Source: Anaeromonas gelatinilytica
GTDB lineage: Bacteria; Bacillota; Clostridia; Tissierellales; SIT17
Length of the DNA: 33,135 nt
Direction: 5' to 3'
Assembly: GCF_016820635.1 (NCBI RefSeq)
Contig: NZ_WSFU01000030.1
Location: 1 to 33,135 of the forward strand
The position numbers and the translations under genes are program-made. The stretch's first letter is position 1. Every line of letters begins with the position of its first letter. Under the pieces are notes generated by a model, which was not told where the DNA came from, made no database searches, and saw nothing but the letters and a program-made list of their open reading frames with translations. Shown here piece after piece: positions 1 through 33,135 of the stretch.

Positions 1-46
1 TTTTCATTATATAATTTTTTCCATGTCAAACTGTAATTATTTCTTT

Positions 47-143
47 AATGCAACACTAGAAGGGTAGGGGATGAAATCACCTGCCGTATTAAGAGGGAAA
101 CTAGGTTTCCTTGAATTACGCGGATACGTTTCTAGTCCGCATT
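47..143 (+). ncRNA. Structured RNA-like element of unknown family
   Basis: Several helices can be drawn. An outer stem pairs AATGC (47-51) with GCATT (139-143) and ACTAGAA (55-61) with TTCTAGT (130-136). Inside it are a hairpin GGTAGG/CCTGCC at 63-85 with a GAT/ATC extension, and a perfect GGAAAC-TAG-GTTTCC hairpin at 96-110. A competing hairpin GCGGA/TCCGC (120-140) followed by ATTTTT overlaps the 3' arm of the outer stem, as in a terminator/antiterminator pair. The element lies upstream of the predicted murA promoter, so it is probably a separate small RNA or the end of an upstream transcript rather than the murA leader. I could not match it to T-box, TPP, SAM, glycine, c-di-GMP, fluoride or 6S consensus features. 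Orientation is inferred from the T-tract. Confidence 0.4.
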
Positions 144-188
144 TTTAATGTGTTTATAGATATTTAGATTTAATATAGTCTTCAGTAT

Positions 189-216
189 TTGAAAAAAGTT
201 ATAAATTGTATATAAT
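189..216 (+). promoter_or_regulatory. Sigma-A-type promoter for murA
   Basis: TTGAAA (189-194) and TATAAT (211-216) are separated by 16 bases, about 75 bases before the murA start. Both boxes match the vegetative consensus closely. Confidence 0.6.
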
Positions 217-290
217 AGAGTATAAGTTGAAATACAATCAAAAGAAAATATAAAAGAGAGGTGAATTTCTGATTTCGGTCAGTATATGAT

Positions 291-1550
291 ATGAATAAAT
301 ACATAATACAAGGTGGAAACAAATTAAATGGAGAAGTTAATATAAGTGGATTTAAAAATGCAATTTTAGCAATAATACCTGCTACATTACTAGCGAAGGA
401 TAAATGTAGAATTGAAAATGTACCTCTTATAAAAGATGTATATATATTAGTAGAGATGATGAAAGAATTAGGAGCAGAAGTTTATTTAGATGAAAAAAAT
501 AATGCTATAGATATAGATACTTCTATGATAGTTGAATGTACAGCTTCATATGATATTGCAAAAGCTTTAAGAGCTTCTTATTATTTAGTAGGAGCTGGAT
601 TGGGAAGATTTAAAGAAGCTCATGTAGCATATCCAGGAGGATGTGATATAGGTTCTCGACCAATTGATCAACATATAAAAGGCTTTGAAGCCTTAGGGAG
701 TAATGTTGAGATTGAGCATGGAATTATAAATTGTAAGGCTGATGAATTAGTAGGTACTAAGATTTATATGGATGTTATAAGTGTTGGGGCAACTATAAAT
801 GTTATGTTGTCGGCAGTAATGGCTAAAGATAAAACAATAATAGAAAATGCAGCAAAAGAGCCACATATAGTTGATACAGCTAATTTTTTAAATGCAATGG
901 GAGCAGATGTTAGAGGTGCTGGAACTGATGTGATAAGAATAAATGGTGTAGATAAGCTTCATGGATGTACATATAGTGTCATACCGGATCAGATTGAAGC
1001 AGGAACATATATAGTAGCAGCTGCAGCCACAGAAGGAAATGTACTTGTAAAAAATGTTATTCCTAAACACTTGGAGTCAATAACTGCTAAATTAAAAGAA
1101 TTAGGAGTAGAAATAATAGAAAATGATGATTCTATTAGAGTTATAGGAAAGCCTAATCTAAAAAAAGTTAATATAAAGACATTACCATATCCAGGATTTC
1201 CTACGGATTTGCAGCAACCTATATCAGTATTGCTTACTAAGGCTGAGGGAATTAGTGTGGTGACAGAGAGTATATTTGAAGGTAGATTTAAATATGTAGA
1301 TGAATTAAAGAGAATGGGTGCAAATATAAAAGTAGATGGTAGGTCAGCAATAATAAGAGGAGCTACACCTTTGAGTGGAACAAAAATAATGGCTACAGAT
1401 TTAAGAGCAGGTGCAGCATGCATAATAGCTGGATTGATTGCAGATGGAGAAACAGAAGTGTATAATATAGAACATGTAGAAAGAGGATATGAAAGAATAG
1501 AAGAGAAACTTAAGGGATTAGGTGTAGATATAAAAAGAGTAACGGAATAG
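291..1550 (+). CDS. murA: UDP-N-acetylglucosamine 1-carboxyvinyltransferase (MurA)
   Basis: Transfers enolpyruvate from PEP to UDP-GlcNAc, the first committed step of peptidoglycan synthesis, in the cytoplasm. The 419-aa length is normal for the family. The N-terminus with GGNKLNGEV and FKNA (Lys22), the [10 protein letters not shown] loop with the fosfomycin-target Cys118, and the C-terminal [13 protein letters not shown] segment are all classical. There is no upstream in-frame alternative start, because a TGA lies at 270-272. The best Shine-Dalgarno (AAGAGAGGTG, about 254-263) is unusually far, about 28 bases, from the ATG; a small CTGA/TCAG hairpin between them could shorten the effective distance. 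A terminator-like hairpin overlaps the stop codon, so walJ may be only partly co-transcribed. Clostridia often carry two MurA paralogues; which one this is cannot be told from the window. Confidence 0.95.
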
Positions 1551-1576
1551 CTTAAGAGTTATTTCGTTTTTATTTA
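1541..1576 (+). terminator. Terminator-like hairpin overlapping murA stop
   Basis: AACGGAATA (1541-1549) pairs with TATTTCGTT (1560-1568) with one G-U, followed by a T-rich tail. The stem is AT-rich and contains the stop codon, so it may attenuate rather than fully terminate. Confidence 0.45.
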
Positions 1577-1645
1577 TTGAGTTCACATCACAAAAACATC
1601 ACAAACAATTTATAAAATAAATTGTGAAAATATGGAGGAGTAATA

Positions 1646-2440
1646 ATGGCATTTAAATTTTGTTCAATAGCAAGTGGCAGTAGCGGTAATTGCCAATATA
1701 TAGAAGGTGGTAAAGGAAAAATACTTGTAGATGCTGGATTGAGTGGCAAGAGAATTCAAGAGAGTCTTAATTCGATAGGAGCAAATTCTGGAAATATAGA
1801 TGGAATATTAGTAACACATGAGCATAAGGATCATATAAAAGGAGTAGGAATATTGTCTAGAAGGTTTGATATTCCTATTTATGCGAATAATAATACTTGG
1901 GAAGTCATGAGAGAATATCTTGGAAAATTAAAGGAAGAAAATATAAGGATAATAAAAAATAATGATACATTTGAGATAAAGGATATAGGAATAAGTACCT
2001 TTAAGACTAGTCATGATGCAATTGATTCCATGGGATACACATTAAATTATAGGAATAAAAAGATTAGTATAGTAACGGATACAGGAATAATAACTGATGA
2101 GATAAAAAACGAAATAAAGAATTCAGATTTATTGATGTTAGAGTCTAATCATGATGTTGATATGCTTAAAGTAGGAAGTTATCCTTATTATCTAAAAAAA
2201 AGAGTATTAAGTAGCAGTGGGCATCTTTCTAATGAAGATGCAGGAAATTTAATCGTTGATATTTTTCAAGATAAATTCAAAAAAATATTTCTAGGACATC
2301 TAAGTAAGGAAAATAATTTTCCAGAATTAGCTTATCAAACAGTGGTTAATATAATATCAGAGAAGGGTATAAAAATTAATAAAGATGTAGAAATAGATAT
2401 AGCTAATCGACATCAACCTACAGTACTTTGTAAAATTTAG
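1646..2440 (+). CDS. walJ: Metallo-beta-lactamase-fold hydrolase WalJ/YycJ
   Basis: A 264-aa protein of the WalJ (YycJ) family of metallo-beta-lactamase-fold proteins, predicted cytoplasmic phosphodiesterase/nuclease. Family members are tied to the WalRK cell-wall regulon and to coordination of division with replication. The N-terminus reads FCSIASGSSGNC, typical of the family. The metal-binding motif THEHKDH is at residues 57-63, a second metal-ligand region is around SGHLSNEDAG, and a C-terminal FLGHLSKENN motif follows. GGAGGAG lies 6-7 bases before the ATG. It sits 17 bases before htrA, the common walJ-htrA arrangement near the origin in Firmicutes. A 9-bp hairpin (1605-1625) lies just before the ribosome binding site. 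The true substrate is not settled for the family. Confidence 0.9.
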   Translation: MAFKFCSIASGSSGNCQYIEGGKGKILVDAGLSGKRIQESLNSIGANSGNIDGILVTHEHKDHIKGVGILSRRFDIPIYANNNTWEVMREYLGKLKEENIRIIKNNDTFEIKDIGISTFKTSHDAIDSMGYTLNYRNKKISIVTDTGIITDEIKNEIKNSDLLMLESNHDVDMLKVGSYPYYLKKRVLSSSGHLSNEDAGNLIVDIFQDKFKKIFLGHLSKENNFPELAYQTVVNIISEKGIKINKDVEIDIANRHQPTVLCKI

Positions 2441-2457
2441 ATTAGGAAGGGATAACT

Positions 2458-3687
2458 ATGGATGATAATAACTTTAATAATGAAGGAAAGAATAGCGTAG
2501 AAGGTAAGGAAAGTACAGAATGGCATAGTCCAATGAAAAGATCTTCTCAAGGTGTATATTATGAAAAAAATAAGTCTAAAAGGAGATTTATATCTTATTT
2601 TATAGTAGCTTTAATTGCAGCTTTAATAGGTGGATTAATATCTTCATATATTGCTCCTCAATATTTATATGGGAATATTATACCTGTACCAAAAGGAAAT
2701 ACTGGTGGGGAAAACATTGATACAAATAGAATAACTATAGAACCTCAAGAAGACATTACTACGGTATCAGCTGTAGCTGAAAAGGCTATGGATTCTGTGG
2801 TAGGTATAACTACTATAACAACTCAGCAAGATTTTTTTGGTGCTAGAGTGCCATCTGAAGGACTTGGCTCAGGAGTTATTGTTAATAGTAATGGATATAT
2901 ACTTACAAATTCTCATGTTATAGGAGATGGAGATGTAGATCGTATAACGGTCCAATTTGCAGATGGAACTAAGGATGAAGCAGAAGTGCTTTGGAATGAG
3001 TCTGCATTAGATTTAGCAGTAATAAAAGTTAATCAATCAAATTTACCCGCAGCAGAACTAGGAGATTCTGATAAGTTAATAGTAGGAGAACCAGCGATAG
3101 CAATAGGTAATCCATTAGGCTTACAATTCCAACGAACTGTAACATCAGGAGTTATAAGTGGATTAGATAGGACTATATCTAGTGAAGATGTTGTTATGGA
3201 AAACTTAATTCAAACAGATGCTTCAATTAATCCAGGAAATAGTGGTGGTGCATTATTAGATAGAGAGGGTAAAGTCATAGGAATAAATACAGCAAAAATA
3301 ACTTCAGCAGAAGGGTTAGGATTCTCTATTCCTATAAATATAGTAAAACCTATAATAGAGCAAATAATATCTGATGGAGAAGTGAATATAGCCTATATTG
3401 GAGTATCAGGAATGGATGTAACTAAATATGAAAAAGCATTAGGTATGAATATAGATGCTGAAGAAGGATTTATAATTATAGAAATAGTAGCTGGCTCGCC
3501 AGCTGCGGATGCTGGAATACGTGCAAATGATATACTAACAAAGATAGGAGACACAAAGGTAACAAGTTTTAACACATTAAGAAAGGCTTTGTATAAATAT
3601 AAACCTGGAGATACAGAGGAAATTACTTTGATAAGAAATGGTGAAACCATGCAGGTAGATATAACATTTGAATCGGCTTCCAAATAA
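2458..3687 (+). CDS. htrA: Membrane-anchored HtrA/DegP-type serine protease with PDZ domain
   Basis: A 409-aa envelope quality-control protease of the S1C family. A charged cytoplasmic N-terminus is followed by one transmembrane helix (about residues 44-64), a linker, the trypsin-like domain and one C-terminal PDZ domain (about 310-400). The catalytic triad is visible: His153 in TNSHV, Asp185 in SALDLAV, and Ser262 in NPGNSGGALL. The layout matches YycK/HtrC-type HtrA proteins encoded beside walJ. The protease domain should face outside the membrane and degrade or refold damaged exported proteins. It follows walJ by 17 bases with AGGAAGGG as the ribosome binding site, so the two are co-transcribed. 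A strong terminator follows. Confidence 0.95.
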   Translation: MDDNNFNNEGKNSVEGKESTEWHSPMKRSSQGVYYEKNKSKRRFISYFIVALIAALIGGLISSYIAPQYLYGNIIPVPKGNTGGENIDTNRITIEPQEDITTVSAVAEKAMDSVVGITTITTQQDFFGARVPSEGLGSGVIVNSNGYILTNSHVIGDGDVDRITVQFADGTKDEAEVLWNESALDLAVIKVNQSNLPAAELGDSDKLIVGEPAIAIGNPLGLQFQRTVTSGVISGLDRTISSEDVVMENLIQTDASINPGNSGGALLDREGKVIGINTAKITSAEGLGFSIPINIVKPIIEQIISDGEVNIAYIGVSGMDVTKYEKALGMNIDAEEGFIIIEIVAGSPAADAGIRANDILTKIGDTKVTSFNTLRKALYKYKPGDTEEITLIRNGETMQVDITFESASK

Positions 3688-3694
3688 TATAGAT

Positions 3695-3732
3695 AGAATA
3701 CTTCGAAATTTAACGAAGTATTCTATTTTTTA
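3695..3732 (+). terminator. Rho-independent terminator after htrA
   Basis: A perfect 11-bp stem AGAATACTTCG (3695-3705) / CGAAGTATTCT (3714-3724), 8-base loop, then ATTTTTT. Confidence 0.85.
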
Positions 3733-3834
3733 AATTTATTAAAAATAAAGAGGAATTAGATAATATAAAATAGAAATAATAAAAATAGGATATAATATAA
3801 ATAATAAATGATACTAAATTTAGGAGGAGTAATT

Positions 3835-4002
3835 ATGTATGTTGTTTGTAATGAACACTTAACTGAAGCAATAGATGAATTTGTAGAAGTATATGAACAG
3901 CCACCAGACATATATGAACTAGATAGTGTATCTTTTACTGATTGGATAGCACCTTCTATATGTGATAAATGTGATAAAACGCCAAAATATTTGGTAGTTT
4001 AG
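3835..4002 (+). CDS. Small CxxH/CxxC protein (BA_5709-like family)
   Basis: A 55-aa protein with CNEH near the N-terminus (residues 5-8) and CDKC near the C-terminus, four likely metal ligands probably holding one zinc. It matches the small CxxH/CxxC family that typically sits between htrA and rlmH in Firmicutes; the biochemical role is unknown. I chose ATG 3835 rather than the in-frame ATG at 3808 because AGGAGGAG (3822-3829) is correctly spaced only for 3835. It has its own upstream region after the htrA terminator, with a TATAAT at 3791-3796 but no convincing -35 box. Confidence 0.8.
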   Translation: MYVVCNEHLTEAIDEFVEVYEQPPDIYELDSVSFTDWIAPSICDKCDKTPKYLVV

Positions 4003-4064
4003 ATTTAAATATAAGGTTTGTATTGTGGACAAGCAGGGTATTATGGATGAAAGGATTATAATAT

Positions 4065-4544
4065 ATGAACATAACAATAATTTCAGTAGGAAAAATAAAA
4101 GAAAAATATATAAATGGAGGAATAAAGGAATTTACAAAGAGACTTTCAGGATATTGTAATCTTAAAATAATTGAAGTAAAGGATGAATCCACAAAGGAAG
4201 ATATGTCAGAAACTGAGAAAAATATTTTAAAGGATAAGGAAGGGGAGAGGATATTATGTAAAATTCCTAGTGATTCATACATGATAAGTTTATGTATAGA
4301 AGGAAGACAATTATCCTCTGAGGAATTATCAAAAAACATAGATAAATTGACTCTTATGGGAAAAAGTAAGATTATTTTTATAATAGGAGGATCAGTAGGC
4401 CTCTCTAATAAGGTAATAAAAAGGAGTGATATGAAATTATCATTCTCTAAGATGACCTTTCCTCATCAATTAATGAGGTTGATATTATTAGAACAGATAT
4501 ATAGGTCTTTTCGAATTAGCAGAGGCGAACCCTATCATAAGTAG
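4065..4544 (+). CDS. rlmH: 23S rRNA (pseudouridine1915-N3) methyltransferase RlmH
   Basis: A 159-aa SPOUT-class methyltransferase that methylates pseudouridine 1915 of 23S rRNA in assembled 70S ribosomes, using S-adenosylmethionine. The length is exactly that of the family. The start [15 protein letters not shown], the SAM-binding knot segment [11 protein letters not shown], and the invariant C-terminal end SRGEPYHK are all present. It lies 62 bases after the CxxH/CxxC gene, the conserved near-origin neighbourhood. It is the last gene with native AT-rich composition before the foreign-looking PTS block. Confidence 0.95.
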
Positions 4545-4590
4545 TCGTAATTTTTATTGCTACTAAAATTAAAAGTAAGTAGGCAAAAAA

Positions 4591-4793
4591 ATGGATAGAT
4601 TTAATAAAAGTGCAGGAACTAAAAAGAGGGAAATATTATTTTATAGGTCTGAATTTCAAGACATATAAAGAATATATTTGAAGAAGAGGAACTGGAAAGG
4701 GACTCAAGTGAAATTGGTAATTATGCAAAAATCGTTTATAATGGAAAGAAAGAGAGGCTCTGCGCTTTACAAGTGCTGTTCGAAAAACTTTGA
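4591..4793 (+). pseudogene. Frameshifted small ORF remnant, family not recognised
   Basis: A reading frame from ATG 4591 runs 25 codons to TAA 4666. Continuing in the -1 frame, an ORF stays open from about 4653 to TGA 4791 and reads as protein-like sequence (for example SSEIGNYAKIVYNGKKE and LCALQVLFEKL). Joined by one frameshift they would make a protein of about 67 aa. There is no good ribosome binding site before 4591. The second fragment ends a few bases before the ribosome binding site of the PTS regulator, that is, at the edge of the foreign-looking block. It could be a decayed gene or chance ORFs; I do not recognise the product. Confidence 0.35.
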
Positions 4794-4808
4794 TGTGAGG
4801 TGAGATTT

Positions 4809-7631
4809 TTGAGTAAGCGAATGGAAAAAATTTATCAATACATTGTTAATAAAATTAATACTTTCTCACATATAAAAAAAACAACAGTTGTAACGACAAG
4901 TGAGGTTGCTGGGGAACTTAAGATTCAGAGAAGTAATGCGAGCAAGGATTTAAATCAGTTGGTTCGAGATGGACGTCTAATCAAATTAAAAGGTCGACCA
5001 GTTGAATACACATTGGTCCAAGAGAAGATAGATGAACTGTCGGAGAAATACGTGCCAAGTTATAAAGAAGAACGACAGCCTCGAGAAAAGCGGAAACCGC
5101 AACGTGTTTCAACATTTGTTCCTGTAAAAGATATTTTTTCGAATATCATCGGAATCAATGGCAGTATGAAAAATGCGGGAGAGCAGGCTAAAGCAGCCAT
5201 TCTGTATCCACCAAAGGGATTGAATTGCTTGATTACAGGCCCAACTGGTTCAGGTAAAACCTATTTTGCGCATGCTATGTTTCAATTTGCTAAAGCTAAT
5301 CAAGTAATTGGAAAAGAAAAAGAGTTAATCGTCTTTAACTGTGCGGATTATGCGAATAATCCGGAATTGTTGATGAGTCATTTATTTGGATATGCTAAAG
5401 GAGCATTTACAGGTGCAGATAAAGAAAAATTAGGCGTGATTGATCAAGCAGACGGAAGTATGCTTTTTTTAGATGAAATTCATCGACTACCACCAGAAGG
5501 ACAAGAAATGATTTTTTATTTTATGGATTATGGTTCTTATAGCCGATTGGGAGAAACTGGTAAAAATCATTATGCGGAGGTTCGTATTGTTGGTGCAACA
5601 ACAGAAGATTCGAATTCTGCCTTGCTAGATACCTTCATGAGACGTATCCCAATTAATATTCAATTACCTTCTTTTGAAAAGCGTCCAGCTGTTGAAAAGT
5701 TGGATTTAGTCAAAGTCATGGTTTCTCATGAGGCAAGTCGCATTCAACGAACGGTGTCTTTAACAGAAGATGTGGTGAAAGCATTGATTGGTAGCGTAAG
5801 TTTTGGAAATATCGGACAATTAAAATCGAATGTTCAATTAGTTTGTGCGCGTGGATTCTTGAATCATGTGCATCAACGTCAAATCGATATCACGCTAGAA
5901 GATGTTCCAGAAGGTATTCGATCGGGATTGATTATGTTAGCAAATAAGCGAGAAACACTGATGGAGTTGTCACAAAATCTTGAATCTAAAATGGTTATTC
6001 AACCGAATGAAGATATTTTAAATATCCAGTCAGATTCCTATGAATTACCTTATAATTTATATGATATTATCGGGGATAAAGCGGCTTTATTAAAAGCTGA
6101 TGGTGTAGACCAAGAGGCAATCAATAATTTTATATCAACAGATATTAATGTTCATTTGAAATCTTTTTACAAAGATCATGGTTTTTCCTTCCATGCAGAT
6201 AATAAGTTAAGTGAGTTTGTGGATCAAAAAGTGATTGAATTGACAAATCGTATTCACGCAATAGTTTGTAGTCGCTTAGATTATGATTTTCAACAAAACT
6301 TTGTTTATGCAATGAGTTTGCATATCAGCTCATTTTTAAAGAAGATTCAACTTGGTGAAAAAAGACATACCAATGACAATATTCGTGAGATGGTAGCAGA
6401 CTATCCAGAAGAATTTAAGGTTGCCCAAGAAATCCGTCAATTCATTGGAGAATGGTTTAACGTCACGATTCCAGAGAGTGAAGAATACTATCTGGCTGTA
6501 TTATTGGTTTCGTTACGTAACAGTTCAACAGAAGGGAAAATTGGTGTGGTTGTGGCAGCTCATGGCAACAGTACAGCGACAAGTATGGTAGATGTCGTGA
6601 AACAGCTTTTAGGTGTAGAGCAAGTTGTGGCCGTAGATATGCCGTTGGACATGTCAACCAAAATTGCTTTAGAAAAAATGAAACAAGCGGTGTTATCGGT
6701 TCATGATGGCAGCGGTGTGTTATTGTTGGTGGATATGGGGTCATTGGTTACATTTAACGTAGAAATTCAAAGAGAAACTGGAGTTTTTGTTCGTACAATC
6801 GATATGGTTACGACGTCAGTTGTATTGGAAGCTGTAAGAAAGGCTTCTGTTTTGGGAATGAATTTGGAAGATTTATATGAATCTTTAAAGAATTTTCGAG
6901 GATATAGCGACTTCGAGGATATAATGACTAATTTTGTGGAAAGCCACCTTCCTCGAGCAATTTTAGCTATTTGTGCCTCGGGAGAAGGAGCGGCAAAACA
7001 AATCAAAGAAATGATTTGTGCTGTGTTGGATAAAAAACGAATCAATGATATTGAAGTGGTTACTTTATCTGCGGTAGATCTGCAAAATACTTTACCAGAA
7101 GTACAAAAACGATATCAAGTGATTGCTTCCACAGGTGTAGTCGATCCACAATTAGCTGTTCCTTTTATTTCTCTAGAAAATTTTGTCACTAAAGATATTG
7201 ATGAATTGATCGAACATCTACTTATAGGAAACGGGATTTTAAATGAAGGTACTACCACTTTGGATTATAAAGAAACAAAACAGGTCTGTATGGACTTTTT
7301 AGAGAAAAATTTTACGTTTTTGAATCCGAAAAAAATGATCGACCCATTATGGCAATTCACAGAAGATATTATGAATACTTGGCGCGTTTCAAAAGAAGAA
7401 GAAGGCTTTCGAATCAATTTTCTTCTTCATGCAGCAGGCATGTTAGAACGTGTATTGCTTCATCAGCCACTGACAGGCGCAGAGGAAGAAGAACGAGCAC
7501 TTCAAGATGATGAACACTATGATAAATTACATGTTCATGTGTTGTCTTTAGGTAGAATATTGAATTTAACGATTCCGTTGATGGAAGAGTTTTATTTATT
7601 GGCATTGATTAAGCGACAGTTGGAAAAATAG
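4809..7631 (+). CDS. manR: LevR/ManR-type sigma-54 activator with PTS regulation domains
   Basis: A 940-aa transcription activator of the LevR/ManR family. In order (numbered from the GTG at 4800): winged-helix DNA-binding region (1-75); sigma-54 AAA+ domain with Walker A GPTGSGKT (147-154), the sigma-54 contact loop GAFTGA (201-206) and Walker B LFLDE (222-226); PRD1 (about 445-575, His508); mannose-type EIIA-like domain (about 580-700, His588 in AAHGN); EIIB-like region with ICASGEG (about 718-810); C-terminal PRD2 (about 845-943). Phosphorylation of these histidines by HPr and PTS proteins normally sets activity. GTG 4800, TTG 4809 and ATG 4821 are all in frame; AGGTGAG (4798-4804) best fits TTG. 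It drives the sigma-54 promoter just downstream. Codon use (CGT, CGA) and GC are higher than in flanking genes, indicating transfer, probably from Enterococcus-like bacteria. Confidence 0.9.
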   Translation: MSKRMEKIYQYIVNKINTFSHIKKTTVVTTSEVAGELKIQRSNASKDLNQLVRDGRLIKLKGRPVEYTLVQEKIDELSEKYVPSYKEERQPREKRKPQRVSTFVPVKDIFSNIIGINGSMKNAGEQAKAAILYPPKGLNCLITGPTGSGKTYFAHAMFQFAKANQVIGKEKELIVFNCADYANNPELLMSHLFGYAKGAFTGADKEKLGVIDQADGSMLFLDEIHRLPPEGQEMIFYFMDYGSYSRLGETGKNHYAEVRIVGATTEDSNSALLDTFMRRIPINIQLPSFEKRPAVEKLDLVKVMVSHEASRIQRTVSLTEDVVKALIGSVSFGNIGQLKSNVQLVCARGFLNHVHQRQIDITLEDVPEGIRSGLIMLANKRETLMELSQNLESKMVIQPNEDILNIQSDSYELPYNLYDIIGDKAALLKADGVDQEAINNFISTDINVHLKSFYKDHGFSFHADNKLSEFVDQKVIELTNRIHAIVCSRLDYDFQQNFVYAMSLHISSFLKKIQLGEKRHTNDNIREMVADYPEEFKVAQEIRQFIGEWFNVTIPESEEYYLAVLLVSLRNSSTEGKIGVVVAAHGNSTATSMVDVVKQLLGVEQVVAVDMPLDMSTKIALEKMKQAVLSVHDGSGVLLLVDMGSLVTFNVEIQRETGVFVRTIDMVTTSVVLEAVRKASVLGMNLEDLYESLKNFRGYSDFEDIMTNFVESHLPRAILAICASGEGAAKQIKEMICAVLDKKRINDIEVVTLSAVDLQNTLPEVQKRYQVIASTGVVDPQLAVPFISLENFVTKDIDELIEHLLIGNGILNEGTTTLDYKETKQVCMDFLEKNFTFLNPKKMIDPLWQFTEDIMNTWRVSKEEEGFRINFLLHAAGMLERVLLHQPLTGAEEEERALQDDEHYDKLHVHVLSLGRILNLTIPLMEEFYLLALIKRQLEK

Positions 7632-7660
7632 GAGTGTATTCAACACGCTCTATTAAAATG

Positions 7661-7746
7661 ATACACTACAACGATACACTAATTCAAATATGTTTTATAG
7701 TGTATTTTTTTTGTTCGAATAATATTATTAAAGCTTATTAGTGTAT
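7661..7746. promoter_or_regulatory. Four ATACACTA repeats, candidate activator sites
   Basis: The octamer ATACACTA occurs at 7661-7668 and 7674-7681, and its complement TAGTGTAT at 7698-7705 and 7739-7746. All lie upstream of the sigma-54 promoter, where a ManR-type activator binds as a multimer. Copies 2 and 3 also form an 8-bp stem followed by eight Ts (7705-7712), so this part may also terminate the regulator transcript. Confidence 0.6.
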
Positions 7747-7754
7747 TGTTTTTT

Positions 7755-7770
7755 TGGCATGTATTTTGCT
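7755..7770 (+). promoter_or_regulatory. Sigma-54 (-24/-12) promoter of the PTS operon
   Basis: TGGCAT, five bases, TTGC, then T: TGGCATGTATTTTGCT matches the RpoN consensus TGGCAY-N5-TTGCW. It lies directly between a sigma-54 activator gene and the operon such activators control. Its use needs host RpoN, which is not in this window. Confidence 0.88.
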
Positions 7771-7844
7771 TATTAATTGAGAAGAGGAGGTGAAGGGATT
7801 CATACCTAACAAATGAATGTTTGCAGACAGGAGGAGAGGAGAAC

Positions 7845-8330
7845 GTGGAAATTCGGTTGGCGCGAATTGATGATCGATTAATTCATGGACAGGTAGCAAC
7901 TGCATGGACAAAACAGATAGACATTAATCGAATCATTGTCGTGAGTGATGAAGTGGCAAATGATCAATTACGGAAATTCTTGTTAAGAGAAGCAGCTCCG
8001 CCAGGAATTAAGGTGAATGTTGTAACAGTAGCAAAGTTACTGGAGGTATTTAACAGTGATTTATTTATAAATCAAAAAGTCATGTTGTTATTTACAAACC
8101 CTCAGGATGTAGAAGTATTGATACACGGGGGAATCAAATTGAACTCGTTAAATATTGGTGGAATGCGTTTCATTGCAGGAAAACGTATGATAACAAATTT
8201 TGTATCAGTTGATGATAAAGATGTAGCATCTTTTCGATATTTAGACAGTCAAGGGATCGAATTAGAGGTACGAAAAGTTCCGACAGATCGGAAAGTTCAT
8301 CTCATGCATTTGTTAGAAAAAAAAGTATAA
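7845..8330 (+). CDS. PTS mannose/fructose/sorbose-type EIIB component
   Basis: A 161-aa stand-alone EIIB of the mannose PTS family. It takes phosphate from EIIA and passes it to the sugar entering through IIC/IID. The phospho-histidine motif DDRLIHGQVATAW is near the N-terminus, and the rest aligns by eye along its whole length with the EIIB half of the next gene, including VVSDEVANDQLRK and EAAPPGIKVNV. I prefer GTG 7845 over TTG 7821 because GGAGGAGAGGAG (7830-7841) sits just before it and the protein then starts VEIRLARIDDR, as is usual. First gene after the sigma-54 promoter. The operon therefore has two EIIB domains, as in the enterococcal mpt locus (IIB, IIAB, IIC, IID). Confidence 0.9.
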   Translation: MEIRLARIDDRLIHGQVATAWTKQIDINRIIVVSDEVANDQLRKFLLREAAPPGIKVNVVTVAKLLEVFNSDLFINQKVMLLFTNPQDVEVLIHGGIKLNSLNIGGMRFIAGKRMITNFVSVDDKDVASFRYLDSQGIELEVRKVPTDRKVHLMHLLEKKV

Positions 8331-8396
8331 ATTTGGTGGAAAACGGAAATATGAAAAAAGTTGGACAGAGAATTTTAGCAAATAGGAGGTAAGAAG

Positions 8397-9383
8397 ATGG
8401 TAGGAATTATCCTAGCAAGTCATGGGGAATTCGCAAATGGAATTTTACAATCAGGAGCAATGATTCTTGGTGAACAAGAAAATGTTGCTGCATGTGTGTT
8501 AAAACCTAGTGAAGGTCCAGATGATATTAAGGCGAAAATGCAAGAGGCAATTGACTCATTTGATGACCAAGAAGAAATTCTTTTCTTAGTGGATCTTTGG
8601 GGAGGTACACCATTTAACCAAGCCAATAGTCTTTTTGAAGCACACAAGAACAAATGGGCAATTGTTGCAGGTATGAATTTACCAATGGTAATCGAAGCGT
8701 ATACTTCTCGTTTCTCTATGAATTCGGCACGGGAAATTGCAGCAGCGATTTTATCAACTGCAAAAGATGGTGTGAAAGTAAAACCAGAGGAATTGGAGCA
8801 AAAAACAGCAGTAGTATCGATCGAAGCAGATGACGAGGTATCAAAAGGCTCACTTTCTCCAGGAACAGTTGTTGGCGATGGAAAAATCAAAATTGTATTG
8901 GCGCGCGTGGATTCACGACTTTTACACGGTCAGGTTTCAACTTCATGGACAAAAGCAACGCAACCAAACCGAATTATTGTTGTGAGTGATGCGGTAGCTA
9001 AAGATGATTTGAGAAAACGTCTAATTGAGCAAGCAGCTCCTCCAGGGGTAAAAGCTAATGTTATTCCGATCAGCAAGATGGTTGAAGTATCGAAAGACCC
9101 TCGTTTTGGTTCAACAAAAGCGTTACTATTATTTGAAAATCCAGAAGATGTTGTTCGAGTAATCGAAGGTGGTGTAGACATTAAAGAAGTTAATGTAGGT
9201 TCAATGGCGCACTCAACTGGAAAAGTGGCAGTAAACAAGGTGTTGTCTATGGGAAAAGAAGACGTTGCAAATTTTGAGCGATTAAAAGAATTAGGCGTAA
9301 AATTTGATGTACGCAAAGTTCCAAATGATTCTAGTGTCCGTTTAGATGAACTTCTAAATAGAGCTAAAGCAGAATTAAAATAG
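8397..9383 (+). CDS. PTS mannose-type EIIAB fusion
   Basis: A 328-aa two-domain phosphocarrier. The EIIA domain (about 1-130) starts MVGIILASHGEFANGIL with phospho-His10, accepts phosphate from HPr, and contains the LVDLWGGTPFN segment typical of the family. A linker (about 131-160) leads to the EIIB domain (about 161-328) with the phospho-His in DSRLLHGQVSTSW. AGGAGGT is well placed before the ATG. This domain order matches ManAB/MptAB-type proteins. It works with the membrane components encoded next; the state of the EIIA domain probably also signals sugar availability to the upstream activator. Composition is foreign relative to the chromosome around it. Confidence 0.93.
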   Translation: MVGIILASHGEFANGILQSGAMILGEQENVAACVLKPSEGPDDIKAKMQEAIDSFDDQEEILFLVDLWGGTPFNQANSLFEAHKNKWAIVAGMNLPMVIEAYTSRFSMNSAREIAAAILSTAKDGVKVKPEELEQKTAVVSIEADDEVSKGSLSPGTVVGDGKIKIVLARVDSRLLHGQVSTSWTKATQPNRIIVVSDAVAKDDLRKRLIEQAAPPGVKANVIPISKMVEVSKDPRFGSTKALLLFENPEDVVRVIEGGVDIKEVNVGSMAHSTGKVAVNKVLSMGKEDVANFERLKELGVKFDVRKVPNDSSVRLDELLNRAKAELK

Positions 9384-29004: not shown

Positions 29005-29313
29005 ATGGTTAAAGATGTTAATCATACAAAATTCATAATATTTTCAATTATCATTTTATTATTTTTTATATCGATTACAATGACTTCAGAAGCTGCATAT
29101 TCTATTAGAGTGAGGAAACAATGGGACAAAGTAACTCAAGATGTAGGAACTATAAATTATTTAGTATATGATACAAATATTAGCTATATAAATTTAACGG
29201 TTGTAAATGGTTATACTTATTCTACTTCAACGAAAGATATAACATCTGCAAGCGATAGATTACTTAAAATTATTTCTAGAGTTAGGTATACTAGAACGTA
29301 TAAGGTGTATTAA
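29005..29313 (+). CDS. Secreted small peptide, paralogue A (bacteriocin-like)
   Basis: A 102-aa precursor. It has an N-terminal basic region, a hydrophobic core and a likely Sec signal peptidase site after SEAA (about residue 31), leaving a mature peptide of about 70 residues with RVRKQWDKV, VVNGYTYSTSTKDITS and a C-terminal YTRTYKVY. It has no cysteines in the mature part. It is clearly paralogous to the gene at 31560, which shares W, VNGY-YSTSTK, and YTR-Y-VY. Signal-peptide plus short Trp/Tyr-rich secreted peptide, next to an ABC transporter, resembles the lactococcin-972 style of bacteriocin, but I do not see a clear family match. AGGAGGCG ribosome binding site. Could instead be a secreted signal or surface peptide. 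Confidence 0.7.
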   Translation: MVKDVNHTKFIIFSIIILLFFISITMTSEAAYSIRVRKQWDKVTQDVGTINYLVYDTNISYINLTVVNGYTYSTSTKDITSASDRLLKIISRVRYTRTYKVY

Positions 29314-29415: not shown

Positions 29416-30315
29416 ATGAATGTATTAGAAGTGAAAGATATATCTAAAACATTAGGACGGAATAAAATATTAAAGGATATATCCTTTAGTATAGGAAAAG
29501 GTGAAATAGTAGGGTTTGTAGGACCTAATGGTGCAGGAAAAACTACAACAATAAGAACTATTACAAATTTAATTTTTCCAGACAGTGGAACAATATCAAT
29601 TTTTGGATATGATCTTATAAAAGAAAGAGAAAATGCATTAAAAAATGTATCTGCAATAGTTGAAAATCCAAGTCTTTATACATATCTGAGTGGTAAAGAT
29701 AATTTGGAATTAGTGAGAAAATTAAATGGAATATCTAAAGAAAAGATGAATGAAATAATTGAATTTGTAGATTTAACTTCTAGAATAAACGATAAAGTTA
29801 GAAAATATTCTCTTGGTATGAAACAAAGGTTAGCATTAGCAATGTGTTTATTAACTGAACCTAAGCTTCTTATATTAGATGAACCTACGAATGGTTTAGA
29901 TCCTACTGGAACTATTGAATTAAGGAATATTCTAATTAAATTATCAGAAGAAAAAAGTATTTCTATATTTATTTCTTCTCATATTTTAAGCGAAATAGAA
30001 AAAATATGTAATAAAATTATATATATAAAAGAAGGACAAATTGTAATTACAAAAAGCTATGATAAAAATAGCAAATTAAAGATGATTAAGTTGGTTATTG
30101 AGGATTCCGTAAAATTAGATTCTAATTTTAAAAATGCAGGACTGGTTGAAGATTATACTATAATTGATAATGAACTAATTATATCTCTAGATATAGATAA
30201 TTTAAGTAAATTATTAAATTATTTTGCAAAAAACAATATTGAATATTCAAATTTTGAAATTTTGAATTCCAAGGTAGAAAAGGAATATGCAGAAATATTT
30301 GGAGGAGAAAAATAA
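29416..30315 (+). CDS. ABC transporter ATP-binding protein (BcrA/DrrA type)
   Basis: A 299-aa ABC ATPase. Walker A GPNGAGKTT is near 37-45, the Q-loop region follows, then the signature YSLGMKQRLALA near 133 and Walker B LLILDEPTNGLDP near 152. A C-terminal extension of about 85 residues is typical of exporters that protect against antimicrobial peptides (BcrA/CcmA group). It overlaps the permease gene by one base (TAATG), so they form one transporter. Being flanked on both sides by paralogous secreted peptides suggests export of, or immunity to, those peptides. Sec signal peptides on the peptides make immunity the likelier role (inference). AAGGAGAAG ribosome binding site. Confidence 0.93.
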   Translation: MNVLEVKDISKTLGRNKILKDISFSIGKGEIVGFVGPNGAGKTTTIRTITNLIFPDSGTISIFGYDLIKERENALKNVSAIVENPSLYTYLSGKDNLELVRKLNGISKEKMNEIIEFVDLTSRINDKVRKYSLGMKQRLALAMCLLTEPKLLILDEPTNGLDPTGTIELRNILIKLSEEKSISIFISSHILSEIEKICNKIIYIKEGQIVITKSYDKNSKLKMIKLVIEDSVKLDSNFKNAGLVEDYTIIDNELIISLDIDNLSKLLNYFAKNNIEYSNFEILNSKVEKEYAEIFGGEK

Positions 30316-31511
30316 TGATTACGCTTATAAGTTTTGAGTTCAAAAAGTTTTTTAGTAAAAAGAAAAATATTATAATAATATTACTTTTATTTTTATTTAC
30401 TTTACTATTTATACTATTAAATAATAATATAAATAGTGATAAAAAGGAATCAGAATTATTTTCTCTTGAAGAACATATTGAGTCTTTTGAAAGTTCATTA
30501 GAGGAATTAGAAAATGATTATGAAAATTTTAAAGATGAAAAACCAACAGTAGCTAATAATATAAAAAAGATAATAGATGATCATGAAATGCAAATAGATA
30601 TATTGAAAAGGAAAAAGCAAGGACTAATAAGTGGTGATTGGAAAGAGAGTCTTAAATCAGATATAGAATTTGATAAGTATACTTTAGAAGGTAAAAAAGA
30701 TGGTACTATTGTAGGGGGTGAAGATTCCAATATAATAGAAGAGAGATTAGAAGTCAATAAAATTCTTTTGGAAAAAAACATAAAACCAATAGATACAGAA
30801 ACTTCAGTTACAGCATGGAATTTCATGAAATTATTAGTTAAAAATTTAGTACCCCTTATAATTATAGTATTAATTCTTTTATTTTCTTCAGATGCTGTAT
30901 CAAGTGAAATGGATGAAGGTACATTTAAGATTTCACTTTTACAACCTATTACAAGAAATAAAATCATTTTATCTAAAATAATTTCATATTCACTCATATG
31001 TATATTAATATTAACAGTATTATTTTCTGCTTTCTTTTTAGGATTGGGGATTATAGAAGGTTTTGGGTCTTCAGAGTATCCTACTAAATATTATAATGGA
31101 AGTTTTACAAATTATTTTGGAAATAATGCGGAAGACGGTGTTGAATATATTCAGATAAAAAAATTTATATTATATATAATTCCTTTCTTGATTTTACTGA
31201 TATTAGCTATAGTGGCGATATCTGTATTTATATCGACAGTCGTAAGTAATAGTTTAGCTGCTATAAGTATTTCAGTAATAGGATATATATCATTTTTTAT
31301 AATAAATTCTCAACTTGGAATGGTTTCCAAAATTGCTCACTTAGTACCTACTACTTATTCTAATATCCCTCTTTTATTGAATGGTGAAGCAATTGTGATA
31401 TATTCAAATAATAATATAACTTATATTAATGGAATTATTGTATTGTTAGCAATAATATTAATATTTAATACTTCGTCGATATTTATGTTTAGAAAGAAAG
31501 ATATATTGTAA
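30315..31511 (+). CDS. ABC-2 type transporter permease
   Basis: A 398-aa permease partner of the ATPase just upstream. The first transmembrane helix (about 18-37) is followed by a long hydrophilic segment (about 40-170) rich in Glu/Lys with coiled-coil character (SLEEHIESFESSLEELEND), presumably outside the membrane. About five more helices follow, with the ABC-2 motif region SSEMDEGTFKISLLQPITRN near 197-217. Start overlaps the ATPase stop with GGAGGAG before it. The large external segment is common in bacteriocin or antibiotic immunity exporters. Confidence 0.88.
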   Translation: MITLISFEFKKFFSKKKNIIIILLLFLFTLLFILLNNNINSDKKESELFSLEEHIESFESSLEELENDYENFKDEKPTVANNIKKIIDDHEMQIDILKRKKQGLISGDWKESLKSDIEFDKYTLEGKKDGTIVGGEDSNIIEERLEVNKILLEKNIKPIDTETSVTAWNFMKLLVKNLVPLIIIVLILLFSSDAVSSEMDEGTFKISLLQPITRNKIILSKIISYSLICILILTVLFSAFFLGLGIIEGFGSSEYPTKYYNGSFTNYFGNNAEDGVEYIQIKKFILYIIPFLILLILAIVAISVFISTVVSNSLAAISISVIGYISFFIINSQLGMVSKIAHLVPTTYSNIPLLLNGEAIVIYSNNNITYINGIIVLLAIILIFNTSSIFMFRKKDIL

Positions 31512-31559
31512 TATCAATAATAAATTTTGAAATTAGAGGGTTAAATTGGAGGTCTGTAT

Positions 31560-31865
31560 ATGAAAGCATTAAAAATAAATACATTAAATAAGAAGTTAAT
31601 ATTAACTTTTTTAGTTATAAGCTTGATTATATTAAGTTTTTCAATTAGTATACAAGCAGCACATGCAGAAAGAGTTTTAAAATCTTGGGATCATGTAGAG
31701 AGAGTTGGGTATTCTCCTTATAATGAGAATTTTAATTATATTACATTAAGTTATGTTAATGGATATTCGTATTCAACTTCAACAAAAAATACGACATCTA
31801 GTGGGGACCTTTTAAAGGGTATTTATAAAAGAATAACTTATACTAGAAGTTATCGTGTATATTAA
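31560..31865 (+). CDS. Secreted small peptide, paralogue B (bacteriocin-like)
   Basis: A 101-aa precursor with a basic N-terminus, a long hydrophobic core and a likely cleavage after AAHA (about residue 36), leaving about 65 residues. The mature part reads RVLKSWDHVERVGYSPY, then YVNGYSYSTSTKNTTS, and ends YTRSYRVY; it aligns by eye with paralogue A across its whole length, with an indel of a few residues after the Trp region. No cysteines. GGAGG lies before the ATG. It is 48 bases after the permease and may share its transcript. The pair may be a two-peptide bacteriocin or a duplicated single one; function is inferred. Confidence 0.7.
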   Translation: MKALKINTLNKKLILTFLVISLIILSFSISIQAAHAERVLKSWDHVERVGYSPYNENFNYITLSYVNGYSYSTSTKNTTSSGDLLKGIYKRITYTRSYRVY

Positions 31866-31960
31866 ATTTAATTTATATTAAATAAAAATAAAACCTTCTA
31901 ATTTCAAATAGTTATTTAATAAATTTATTATATTATTTTGAGTATGTTTTTTAATGAGGA

Positions 31961-32326
31961 GTGTTAAATAAAATTACTTTACCACCAGAATTAAAATTAG
32001 AATCAAAAAGTTATAATTTTAAAGCTAGATATTTTGTTTCAAATTCAGCAAGTGATGTATGGAGAGGAGAAATGAAGTGGAAGAAAAGAGATGGTAGATT
32101 ATTTTTTGCGATATCGCTTCTTGTGATTTCGGTTGTTGGATCTTTTGGAGTTACTTCCATTGTTTATCAGGCAACAGGATGGCGAATGCCTACTTGGTTA
32201 GCTTGGGCTATCATTGGAGCCGGTACTGTATCAGTTGTTGTTGGTTTGTTAGCTACTTATGGTGGGGTTACCGTAGCACCAGGAGTTGTTAAGGCTCTTT
32301 TAGCTGCGGATAGTGTATCACTTTAA
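31961..32326 (+). CDS. Candidate circular bacteriocin precursor
   Basis: A 121-aa ORF with a hydrophilic first part, a charged WKKRDGR region, a hydrophobic helix (FFAISLLVISVVGSFGV) and a Gly/Ala/Val/Trp-rich hydrophobic C-terminal half (WLAWAIIGAGTVSVVVGLLA...). The C-terminal half resembles circular bacteriocins of the uberolysin/gassericin type, which are about 58-70 residues and very hydrophobic; some precursors carry a long membrane-spanning leader. The next genes (small two-helix protein, SpoIIM/DUF95) fit such a cluster. The start is uncertain: GTG 31961 overlaps its only ribosome binding site, while ATG 32072 (84 aa) has GGAGAGGAG just upstream. The core has higher GC and different codons than its neighbours. 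Core boundaries cannot be set by eye. Confidence 0.6.
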   Translation: MLNKITLPPELKLESKSYNFKARYFVSNSASDVWRGEMKWKKRDGRLFFAISLLVISVVGSFGVTSIVYQATGWRMPTWLAWAIIGAGTVSVVVGLLATYGGVTVAPGVVKALLAADSVSL

Positions 32327-32334
32327 ACATTAGT

Positions 32335-32366
32335 TTTAAAGTCAAATTACTTTAAATTAATTTTTC
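32335..32366 (+). terminator. Weak hairpin after bacteriocin gene, possible attenuator
   Basis: TTTAAAGT (32335-32342) pairs with ACTTTAAA (32349-32356), then a T-rich run. AT-rich, so probably a partial terminator letting structural gene mRNA exceed that of downstream genes. Confidence 0.35.
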
Positions 32367-32421
32367 TTCTCAAGAAATTTGGACTGCTTGCTTTTAAATT
32401 TGTGAGGTGAATGGAGAAAAA

Positions 32422-32580
32422 ATGAATTTTTTAAAAGCTATACTAACTATCATAATGATTATTCTATTTGTATTGCTAGTATATTCATTTTTGACAAAGA
32501 AGACAATGGATTTTACTATTGCTATAATCTTTTTTATTGTTGTGATTTTATTCTTTATCTTTAATTTAAAGGGGAAATAG
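32422..32580 (+). CDS. 52-aa two-helix membrane protein, candidate immunity protein
   Basis: A short ORF with GGTGAATGGAG upstream of ATG 32422, encoding 52 residues: one hydrophobic helix (AILTIIMIILFVLLVY), a short basic turn (TKKTMD), a second helix (FTIAIIFFIVVILFFIF) and a basic end (NLKGK). Circular bacteriocin clusters usually include a small basic hydrophobic immunity protein of about 50 residues, and this has the expected size and place between the structural gene and the SpoIIM-like gene. It stops three bases before the next gene's start, so it is translationally coupled. The role is inferred from context only. Confidence 0.65.
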   Translation: MNFLKAILTIIMIILFVLLVYSFLTKKTMDFTIAIIFFIVVILFFIFNLKGK

Positions 32581-32583
32581 TAA

Positions 32584-33075
32584 TTGAAATTAAAACTAAA
32601 ATCGTTTAGTACAGTAAGAGGAGTAATAACGATATTTTTTCTGTTTTTTGTGATTGGGATTTTGGTAGCTATATTAATTAATCCAGAATCTGGAGATATA
32701 ACTAACTTAGATAAATATAAGTCATTGAGAAAAATTTTAAATAATAATGTGATATTGATACTAATAATATATGTTATATCAATATTATCTCCAATACCAC
32801 CAATTATAATTATTGCTCAAAATGGATTAGTATTGGGTGCTTCCATAACATGGATCATAAAGTTCAATCCTATATTACTGATACTTTTATTACCGCATGG
32901 CATCTTTGAAGTTCCAAGTATTTTAGCTACTGCATTTATTATTAATAGAGGAAGAAATCTATTCAGGGATGATCCACGTGTTTTTGTTAAAATATTGTTC
33001 ATACATTTACTTGTAACAATTTTGTTAGCTATAATCGAAGCATACATTACTCCTGAACTAATAAGATACATATAA
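32584..33075 (+). CDS. SpoIIM/DUF95-family membrane protein (bacteriocin maturation)
   Basis: A 163-aa membrane protein with about four or five helices. The family core is seen: an NNNV region near 53 starting a helix, AQNGLVLGASITW near 80-90, and the hallmark PHGIFEVPSILATAF near 104-118 (SpoIIM/DUF95 PHG-x-x-E-x-P). DUF95 proteins are a standard part of circular bacteriocin clusters (uberolysin, garvicin ML, carnocyclin), needed for maturation or secretion; the other home of the family is sporulation SpoIIM, which is longer-established in a different context. Start TTG 32584 with AAAGGGG upstream, almost touching the preceding stop. The cluster probably continues beyond the window. Confidence 0.75.
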   Translation: MKLKLKSFSTVRGVITIFFLFFVIGILVAILINPESGDITNLDKYKSLRKILNNNVILILIIYVISILSPIPPIIIIAQNGLVLGASITWIIKFNPILLILLLPHGIFEVPSILATAFIINRGRNLFRDDPRVFVKILFIHLLVTILLAIIEAYITPELIRYI

Positions 33076-33135
33076 AGACTAACTATATGAAGTCAAATAA
33101 AATTTAAATATTTATCATTCCAAAATTAAAGTATA

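What the first reader, a model, noticed from the sequence alone, without database searches (positions are those of the whole stretch)
31961..33075. Candidate new circular bacteriocin operon cut by the window end
A hydrophobic Gly/Ala/Val/Trp-rich peptide, a 52-aa basic two-helix protein and a DUF95/SpoIIM-like protein are packed in the order seen in circular bacteriocin loci. The precursor does not look like a near copy of AS-48, uberolysin, circularin A or gassericin A, and may have a long membrane-spanning leader.
Basis: partly seen in the sequence, partly recalled or inferred. Interest (0 to 1): 0.75.

Follow-up and report, generated by a model that had tools for sequence, protein, structure and literature searches.

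The report
New circular-bacteriocin-like peptide gene cluster
A bacterial contig ends inside a gene cluster that looks built to make a ring-shaped antimicrobial peptide of a family not matched by known profiles, and a related peptide with the same kind of helper gene sits on a plasmid of a methane-producing archaeon.

Summary
At 32072-32326 lies an 84-codon gene for a hydrophobic peptide, followed by a 52-aa basic two-TM protein and a SpoIIM/DUF95 protein (PF01944, E=3e-16). The peptide matches none of the circular-bacteriocin models (PF12173, PF09221, TIGR03651) and is not detectably similar to gassericin A. It has two independent relatives. One is on plasmid pMETHO01 of the archaeon Methanomethylovorans hollandica: two tandem copies (Ka/Ks about 0.09), a two-TM basic ORF and SpoIIM, the order seen here. 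The other (G938, another class, 51% identical) ends an apparently complete cluster: ABC ATPase, PF16962 exporter, SpoIIM, small membrane protein, second ABC transporter, precursor. The window breaks in a repeated element. Pairing its four left and four right contig ends points to contig C123, with a membrane protein, ABC ATPase and exporter-like protein, as the continuation; that join is inferred, not sequenced. Best reading: a circular-bacteriocin-type locus with a new precursor family shared by Bacteria and Archaea. Cyclisation and activity are untested; structure prediction neither supports nor excludes the saposin-like fold.

The parts
29416..30315 (+). ABC transporter ATPase (299 aa); possibly immunity or export for this locus or for the flanking 101/102-aa proteins
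   Evidence: PF00005 E=2.9e-32; best NCBIfam model is lantibiotic-protection TIGR03740, below its cut-off; 34% identical over 215 aa to the second ATPase of the G938 cluster. Membership of the locus uncertain.
30315..31511 (+). ABC-2 permease (398 aa), presumed partner of the preceding ATPase
   Evidence: PF12679 E=7.4e-27. Membership of the locus uncertain.
32061..32069 (+). Shine-Dalgarno-like GGAGAGGAG of the 84-aa form
   Evidence: read directly
32072..32326 (+). precursor peptide gene, 84 aa (a 121-aa reading from GTG 31961 is possible but less likely)
   Evidence: 51% identical to the G938 precursor, 45-47% to the two M. hollandica copies
32159..32323 (+). putative 55-aa core peptide (Ile30 to the C-terminal Leu84); boundary inferred from conservation
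   Evidence: conserved block begins at [S/A/G]-I in all four aligned sequences; core GRAVY 1.16, K+R-D-E = +1, cyclic mass about 5554 Da if the boundary is right
32422..32580 (+). 52-aa basic two-TM protein, candidate immunity protein
   Evidence: two TM stretches, pI 10.0; same layout as the M. hollandica 65-aa ORF and the 53-aa ORF between the gassericin SpoIIM and ATPase genes; no significant sequence similarity to the former
32584..33075 (+). SpoIIM/DUF95 membrane protein, 163 aa
   Evidence: PF01944 E=3.4e-16; 39% identical over 144 aa to the SpoIIM of the G938 cluster, 24% over 105 aa to that of M. hollandica
33073..33135 (.). left end of a repeated element at which the assembly broke
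   Evidence: same 61-63 bases at the ends of C112, C68 and C73; other end on C123, C82, C77, C1

Best explanation
This is a circular-bacteriocin-type biosynthetic locus with a new precursor family. The 84-aa precursor is a real, conserved gene (shown by its relatives). A leader of about 29 aa is removed and the ends of a core of about 55 aa are joined (inferred from the cluster type). SpoIIM, with the ABC ATPase and the multi-TM exporter-like protein placed on contig C123, matures and/or exports the ring (inferred from the reported role of SpoIIM in leucocyclicin Q and AS-48). The 52-aa basic membrane protein, and perhaps the ABC transporter upstream, protect the producer (inferred). The peptide would kill neighbours by inserting in their membrane (inferred from its hydrophobicity and class). 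A repeated element lies between SpoIIM and the export genes (join inferred) and may supply, or sit at, the ribosome-binding site of the next gene.
For: Peptides from three genomes in two domains of life share a block with a single one-residue gap, ending in [S/T]-x-S-L at the stop codon. Each lies in a locus with a SpoIIM gene. M. hollandica has the same order, precursor / two-TM basic ORF / SpoIIM, with two precursor copies under purifying selection: Ks 0.24, Ka 0.021. The G938 cluster holds ATPase, PF16962 exporter, SpoIIM, 189-aa membrane protein, second ABC transporter and precursor. On C123 the ATPase is 39% identical to that of G938 and the 492-aa protein 21% over 389 aa to its exporter. 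Element ends count four left and four right; two pairs are fixed by gene identity: purN on C68 with purH on C82, a yteA-family gene on C73 with lspA on C77. [quoted passage not shown] section 5; passages).
Against: No circular-bacteriocin model is hit by the peptides (Pfam; NCBIfam), though the models recognise known members. Comparison with gassericin relatives: hhalign probability 0.4%; 67 of 300 column shuffles and 81 of 300 class-preserving shuffles score as well, and 333 of 500 in the ungapped test. AlphaFold without an alignment gives three helices for the 84-aa form and one long helix for the core, pLDDT 73-75, no clear saposin-like bundle; no PDB fold at E<=0.001. The 84-aa form has a sub-threshold DUF983 match. 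The C123 492-aa protein hits no Pfam family up to E=0.5, PF16962 included, and the 171-aa protein none either; the latter resembles the G938 189-aa protein only weakly (E=0.002 pairwise; 0.03 in the set). The join C63-C123 could instead be C63-C1. The 52-aa and M. hollandica 65-aa proteins are alike only in layout.
Confidence: 0.7

Rival explanations
1. A secreted but linear bacteriocin or signal peptide: the same leader removal and ABC/SpoIIM export, without ring closure.
For: No sequence or structural link to known circular peptides; the core model is one long helix. SpoIIM proteins are broader than circular bacteriocins; arCOG01996/DUF95 is common in archaeal islands of unknown function (PMC4158269, passages).
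Against: Conservation runs to the last residue before the stop in all four aligned sequences, and precursor plus SpoIIM plus ATP-binding protein is the set used to define circular loci (PMC8534725, PMC5695211; passages; section).
Confidence: 0.17
2. A membrane-resident small protein that works with SpoIIM and an ABC transporter in envelope stress or defence and is not released.
For: The 84-aa form has two TM-like stretches; weak hits to DUF983 and SLATT/AmaP models. For archaeal DUF95 islands, membrane-associated defence has been suggested (PMC4158269, passages).
Against: All those model hits are below cut-off; the DUF983 hit is not shared by the G938 peptide or the one M. hollandica copy scanned. 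Tandem precursor duplication and patchy cross-domain occurrence fit a toxin better (inference).
Confidence: 0.1
3. The precursor cassette is real, but its export half is not on C123: C63 joins C1, and the locus is partial.
For: Sequence leaves two ways to pair {C63, C112} with {C123, C1}; the sibling-genome check was uninformative. The 385-aa protein that ends C112 has no Pfam or NCBIfam family, so calling it a permease rests on its eight predicted TM stretches and on reading by eye.
Against: C1 starts with an ABC ATPase followed by 0.8 kb without an ORF of 90 aa or more, so a membrane partner upstream, on C112, is plausible. In G938 SpoIIM lies directly between the exporter/ATPase pair and a small membrane protein, the content that C63-C123 would give.
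Confidence: 0.15

Closest known systems
Gassericin A / acidocin B / plantaricyclin A (subgroup II circular bacteriocins, PF12173)
   Same: Hydrophobic leader, core of 55 (inferred) against 58 aa, near-neutral and very hydrophobic core (GRAVY 1.16 against 1.00), SpoIIM, 52-53-aa two-TM small protein, ABC ATPase and a membrane exporter.
   Different: No detectable precursor similarity; small protein before SpoIIM instead of after it; the inferred exporter has 492 aa against 212 aa.
cyc (cerecyclin) cluster of Bacillus, group 11 of PMC8534725
   Same: DUF95, ATP-binding protein, 58-aa putative immunity protein, YIP1 family protein and ABC transporter (passage); M. hollandica has a Yip1-domain gene beside the locus.
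   Different: Its precursor sequence was not compared; neither small membrane protein of C123 or G938 hits Yip1.
Circularin A / uberolysin family (TIGR03651, PF09221)
   Same: Cluster logic only.
   Different: No profile match; subclass I is described as strongly cationic (PMC5695211, passage), while these cores have K+R-D-E of +1, 0 and -3.
arCOG01996 (DUF95) dark-matter islands of archaea
   Same: SpoIIM-like protein in clusters with other membrane proteins, near ABC transporters related to antimicrobial peptide transport in Methanococcales (PMC4158269, passages).
   Different: The passages seen do not link them to a bacteriocin precursor or a circular peptide.

Membership tests
Circular (head-to-tail cyclised) bacteriocin loci | small precursor with leader and hydrophobic core | tested here: met
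   84-aa hydrophobic precursor with homologues in two other genomes; the leader/core boundary is inferred
Circular (head-to-tail cyclised) bacteriocin loci | SpoIIM/DUF95 gene in the operon | tested here: met
   PF01944 E=3.4e-16
Circular (head-to-tail cyclised) bacteriocin loci | ATP-binding protein and exporter in the same cluster | tested here: inconclusive
   present in G938; here on C123, joined by inference only. Another ABC ATPase/permease pair lies upstream in the window
Circular (head-to-tail cyclised) bacteriocin loci | small basic hydrophobic immunity protein | tested here: met
   52 aa, pI 10.0, two TM stretches; immunity function not tested
Circular (head-to-tail cyclised) bacteriocin loci | N-to-C peptide bond in the product | not testable with these tools
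   needs mass spectrometry
Circular (head-to-tail cyclised) bacteriocin loci | saposin-like fold | tested here: inconclusive
   single-sequence models, pLDDT 73-75, helices not bundled clearly; fold search run on the 84-aa model only, no match at E<=0.001
PF12173 gassericin A-like | profile match of the precursor | tested here: not met
   no hit of the 84-aa form up to E=10; in the own genome the model's only match up to E=10 is elsewhere, E=0.38 with stops inside; positive controls hit at 3e-29 and 4e-50
TIGR03651 / PF09221 circularin A, uberolysin | profile match of the precursor | tested here: not met
   no hit; a typed carnocyclin A core hits PF09221 above its cut-off and TIGR03651 at 29.2 bits, just below its 30.7
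DUF983 (PF06170) | score above curated cut-off | tested here: not met
   20.7 of 22.6 bits for the 84-aa form; not hit by the G938 peptide or the M. hollandica copy scanned

The most novel reading that the evidence does not exclude
A precursor family shared by Archaea and Bacteria defines a new branch of circular bacteriocins. Part of the uncharacterised DUF95 islands of archaeal genomes would then be ring-peptide weapons, and plasmid pMETHO01 of M. hollandica would carry an archaeal circular bacteriocin.
Probability: 0.45. Interest if true: 0.8.

Novelty: new variant of a known kind. Interest (0 to 1): 0.62.

Why it matters
Surveys that start from known circular precursors cannot see this family, because its precursor matches none of the models tested here. 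My nine text searches listed no title or abstract start announcing a circular bacteriocin in an archaeon (most listed papers were not opened). If right, the conserved block is a search handle for archaeal antimicrobial peptides and gives a first functional guess for some archaeal DUF95 islands that were of unknown function in PMC4158269 (2014). It can be tested directly in M. hollandica DSM 15978.

Tried and rejected
The only genome contigs match of the 121-aa form (L005, Leptolinea MAG, 19 residues) is taken as chance: the matching frame stops about eight codons after the match and encodes only 47 aa. Two weak class-level matches (E 0.005 and 0.009) and 25 weak phylum-level places (E 1.9e-4 to 0.043; one of them a second place in G938) were rejected: a tblastn of four SpoIIM proteins, three C123 proteins and the G938 exporter against all 27 of these loci (1.6 to 3.2 kb each) found no SpoIIM and no exporter; two loci matched the ABC ATPase. 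Plasmid hits H2-H7 (E 0.6 to 9) were not used; H3 alone was opened and has no SpoIIM gene in the table within 3 kb. PF12173 over 398 genomes rang nowhere, controls included, so it says nothing about absence.

Searches for more relatives gave none in viral contigs, phages, plasmids beyond M. hollandica, 100 relatives (own genome only), 249 genomes of the order (own only) and 13 of the class of G938 (itself only). By eye the core looked like gassericin A; the tests did not support it. The RNA fold between precursor and 52-aa gene is ordinary (z -0.05), no terminator-like site was found at 31500-33135, and promoter-like sites were about as many as in shuffles (14 against a mean of 12.2).

Full report
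What is there. The window (30% G+C) is the whole of contig C63 of a genome of 2.89 Mb in 146 contigs. The 84-codon reading of the peptide has GGAGAGGAG ending 2 nt before its ATG. The 121-codon GTG reading has a GAGGA directly against its start, too close for a normal ribosome-binding site. SpoIIM is clear (PF01944, E=3.4e-16). The peptide reaches no curated cut-off: DUF983 scores 20.7 bits against 22.6, and the circular-bacteriocin models are silent.

Independent relatives: the archaeon. A tblastn of the 84-aa form over 72,556 plasmids found one credible record, pMETHO01 of Methanomethylovorans hollandica DSM 15978 (E=1e-4, 46.6% identity). There the peptide gene occurs twice in tandem, each behind GGAGGTG. 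Next come a 65-aa basic two-TM ORF (start uncertain; not in PLSDB's gene table, which is incomplete) and a gene annotated as stage II sporulation protein M (PF01944 E=8.9e-24). This is the gene order of the window. The two copies differ by 11 synonymous and 3 nonsynonymous changes over 66 codons (Ks 0.24, Ka 0.021), so the protein is under selection. The two SpoIIM proteins are 24% identical over 105 aa. A Yip1-domain gene (PF04893) and ABC transporter genes lie nearby; a YIP1 gene is also part of the cyc cluster of PMC8534725 (passage).

Independent relatives: G938. A profile of the peptides (A1) searched 398 genomes of the phylum. At E<=0.05, 26 genomes matched: the own genome, G938 (C57, E=1.3e-19), and 24 others with weak matches; these and a second weak place in G938 were rejected. 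G938 belongs to another class. Its precursor (79 aa, AGGAGGGGG before the ATG) is 51% identical to ours over 80 aa. It ends a run of genes on one strand: ABC ATPase (238 aa), PF16962 exporter (498 aa), SpoIIM (182 aa, PF01944 E=1.4e-10), 189-aa membrane protein, ABC ATPase and membrane protein (261 aa), precursor. I did not identify a counterpart of the 52-aa gene there; the ORF lists were cut at 35 and 120 aa and I did not look further.

Distribution. Other searches found no further member: 100 relatives (own only), 391 genomes of the class with the single sequence (own plus two weak matches), 249 of the order with the profile (own only), 13 of the class of G938 (itself only), viral contigs and phages. 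The family is rare and patchy in what could be searched. Archaeal genomes as a group were out of reach.

The missing half. C63 ends in 61-63 bases that also end C112, C68 and C73. The G938 exporter has one match in the own genome up to E=10, on C123 (E=2.8e-6, 20% identity). Read inward from its end, C123 begins with a membrane protein (171 aa, or 163 aa from the ATG behind GGAGG), an ABC ATPase (39% identical to the 238-aa ATPase of G938) and a 492-aa multi-TM protein (21% identical over 389 aa to the exporter of G938, but no Pfam hit). The end of C123 shares about 61 bases with the ends of C82, C77 and C1. So one repeated sequence has four left and four right flanks. C68 ends with purN and C82 starts with purH; C73 ends with a yteA-family gene and C77 starts with lspA (NCBIfam). 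These are natural neighbours (recalled), which indicates that the two end sequences belong to one element. Of the remaining flanks, C112 ends in a 385-aa protein with eight TM stretches and no family hit, and C1 starts with an ABC ATPase without an ORF of 90 aa or more in the next 0.8 kb; I read them as one transporter. That leaves C63 with C123, which is also the gene content of G938. A check in the three sibling species was uninformative. The join is an inference, not an observation.

What it works like. [quoted passage not shown] Removal of SpoIIM in leucocyclicin Q left mature rings inside the cell (PMC7132975, passage). The core proposed here (55 aa, K+R-D-E +1, GRAVY 1.16) is like gassericin A in size, charge and hydrophobicity (58 aa, 0, 1.00), and the gassericin operon has a 53-aa two-TM ORF where ours has 52 aa (translation; TM reading by eye). 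I therefore read the mechanism as leader removal, ring closure and export by SpoIIM, ATPase and exporter, with the 52-aa protein as immunity. Ring closure, target and immunity are inferred.

Whether it is a member. By gene content it meets the locus definition, apart from the inferred ATPase join. By sequence it belongs to none of the three precursor models; their controls worked, TIGR03651 only just below its cut-off for a typed carnocyclin A core. Similarity to gassericin-type precursors is not above shuffled controls: 67 of 300 by column shuffle, 81 of 300 by class-preserving shuffle, 333 of 500 ungapped; hhalign probability 0.4%. Structure prediction without an alignment is weak: the 84-aa form has helices 8-35, 41-62 and 69-81, the 55-aa core one helix 12-53, pLDDT 73-75, and the 84-aa model has no PDB match at E<=0.001. 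This neither supports nor excludes the saposin-like fold.

What is in print. Nine text searches of the held library listed no title or abstract start that announces a circular bacteriocin in an archaeon; most of the listed papers were not opened. Of six papers opened, I saw passages only, plus section 5 of PMC8534725. Four mining papers have no word beginning with 'archaea' in their main text; the Hungate1000 paper (PMC13289728, passages) predicts its circular bacteriocins by PF12173 and, in the passages shown, places nine of ten in Lachnospiraceae. PMC4158269 (passages) lists DUF95/arCOG01996 among the most common families of archaeal dark-matter islands, near ABC transporters related to antimicrobial peptide transport; it suggests membrane-associated defence and the passages name no precursor. 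Supplements and most subscription papers were not available, so prior description cannot be excluded.

Verdict. What is added is the cross-domain precursor family, an apparently intact reference cluster, and the likely other half of the operon.

Noticed in passing
window 33073-33135; G000 contigs C112, C68, C73 (left ends) and C123, C82, C77, C1 (right ends): An element with at least four copies lies between genes. All four right ends finish in AAGGAGG, the apparent ribosome-binding site of the next gene, and on C68 the purN frame runs on into the element to its stop. No inverted terminal repeat was seen by eye, and no Rfam family matched on the window or right-flank stretches. It may insert at, or supply, Shine-Dalgarno sequences.
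   Followed up: partly
window 29005-29313 and 31560-31865: Two paralogous basic proteins (102 and 101 aa, 48% identical) with an N-terminal TM-like stretch flank an ABC transporter whose ATPase best resembles lantibiotic-protection ATPases, below cut-off. No Pfam or NCBIfam family reaches its cut-off for them; the second has no plasmid match. Possibly a second peptide system.
   Followed up: partly
L017 6977-7177 and 7575-7775 (pMETHO01): The two archaeal peptide genes are 95% identical in protein and 38 of 40 bases match just downstream, a recent tandem duplication or conversion.
   Followed up: yes
L007 (G000:C112) 1-9217: By eye, C112 carries several ABC-type transporter genes and a regulator/sensor pair beside the element; perhaps another peptide or resistance island.
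   Followed up: no
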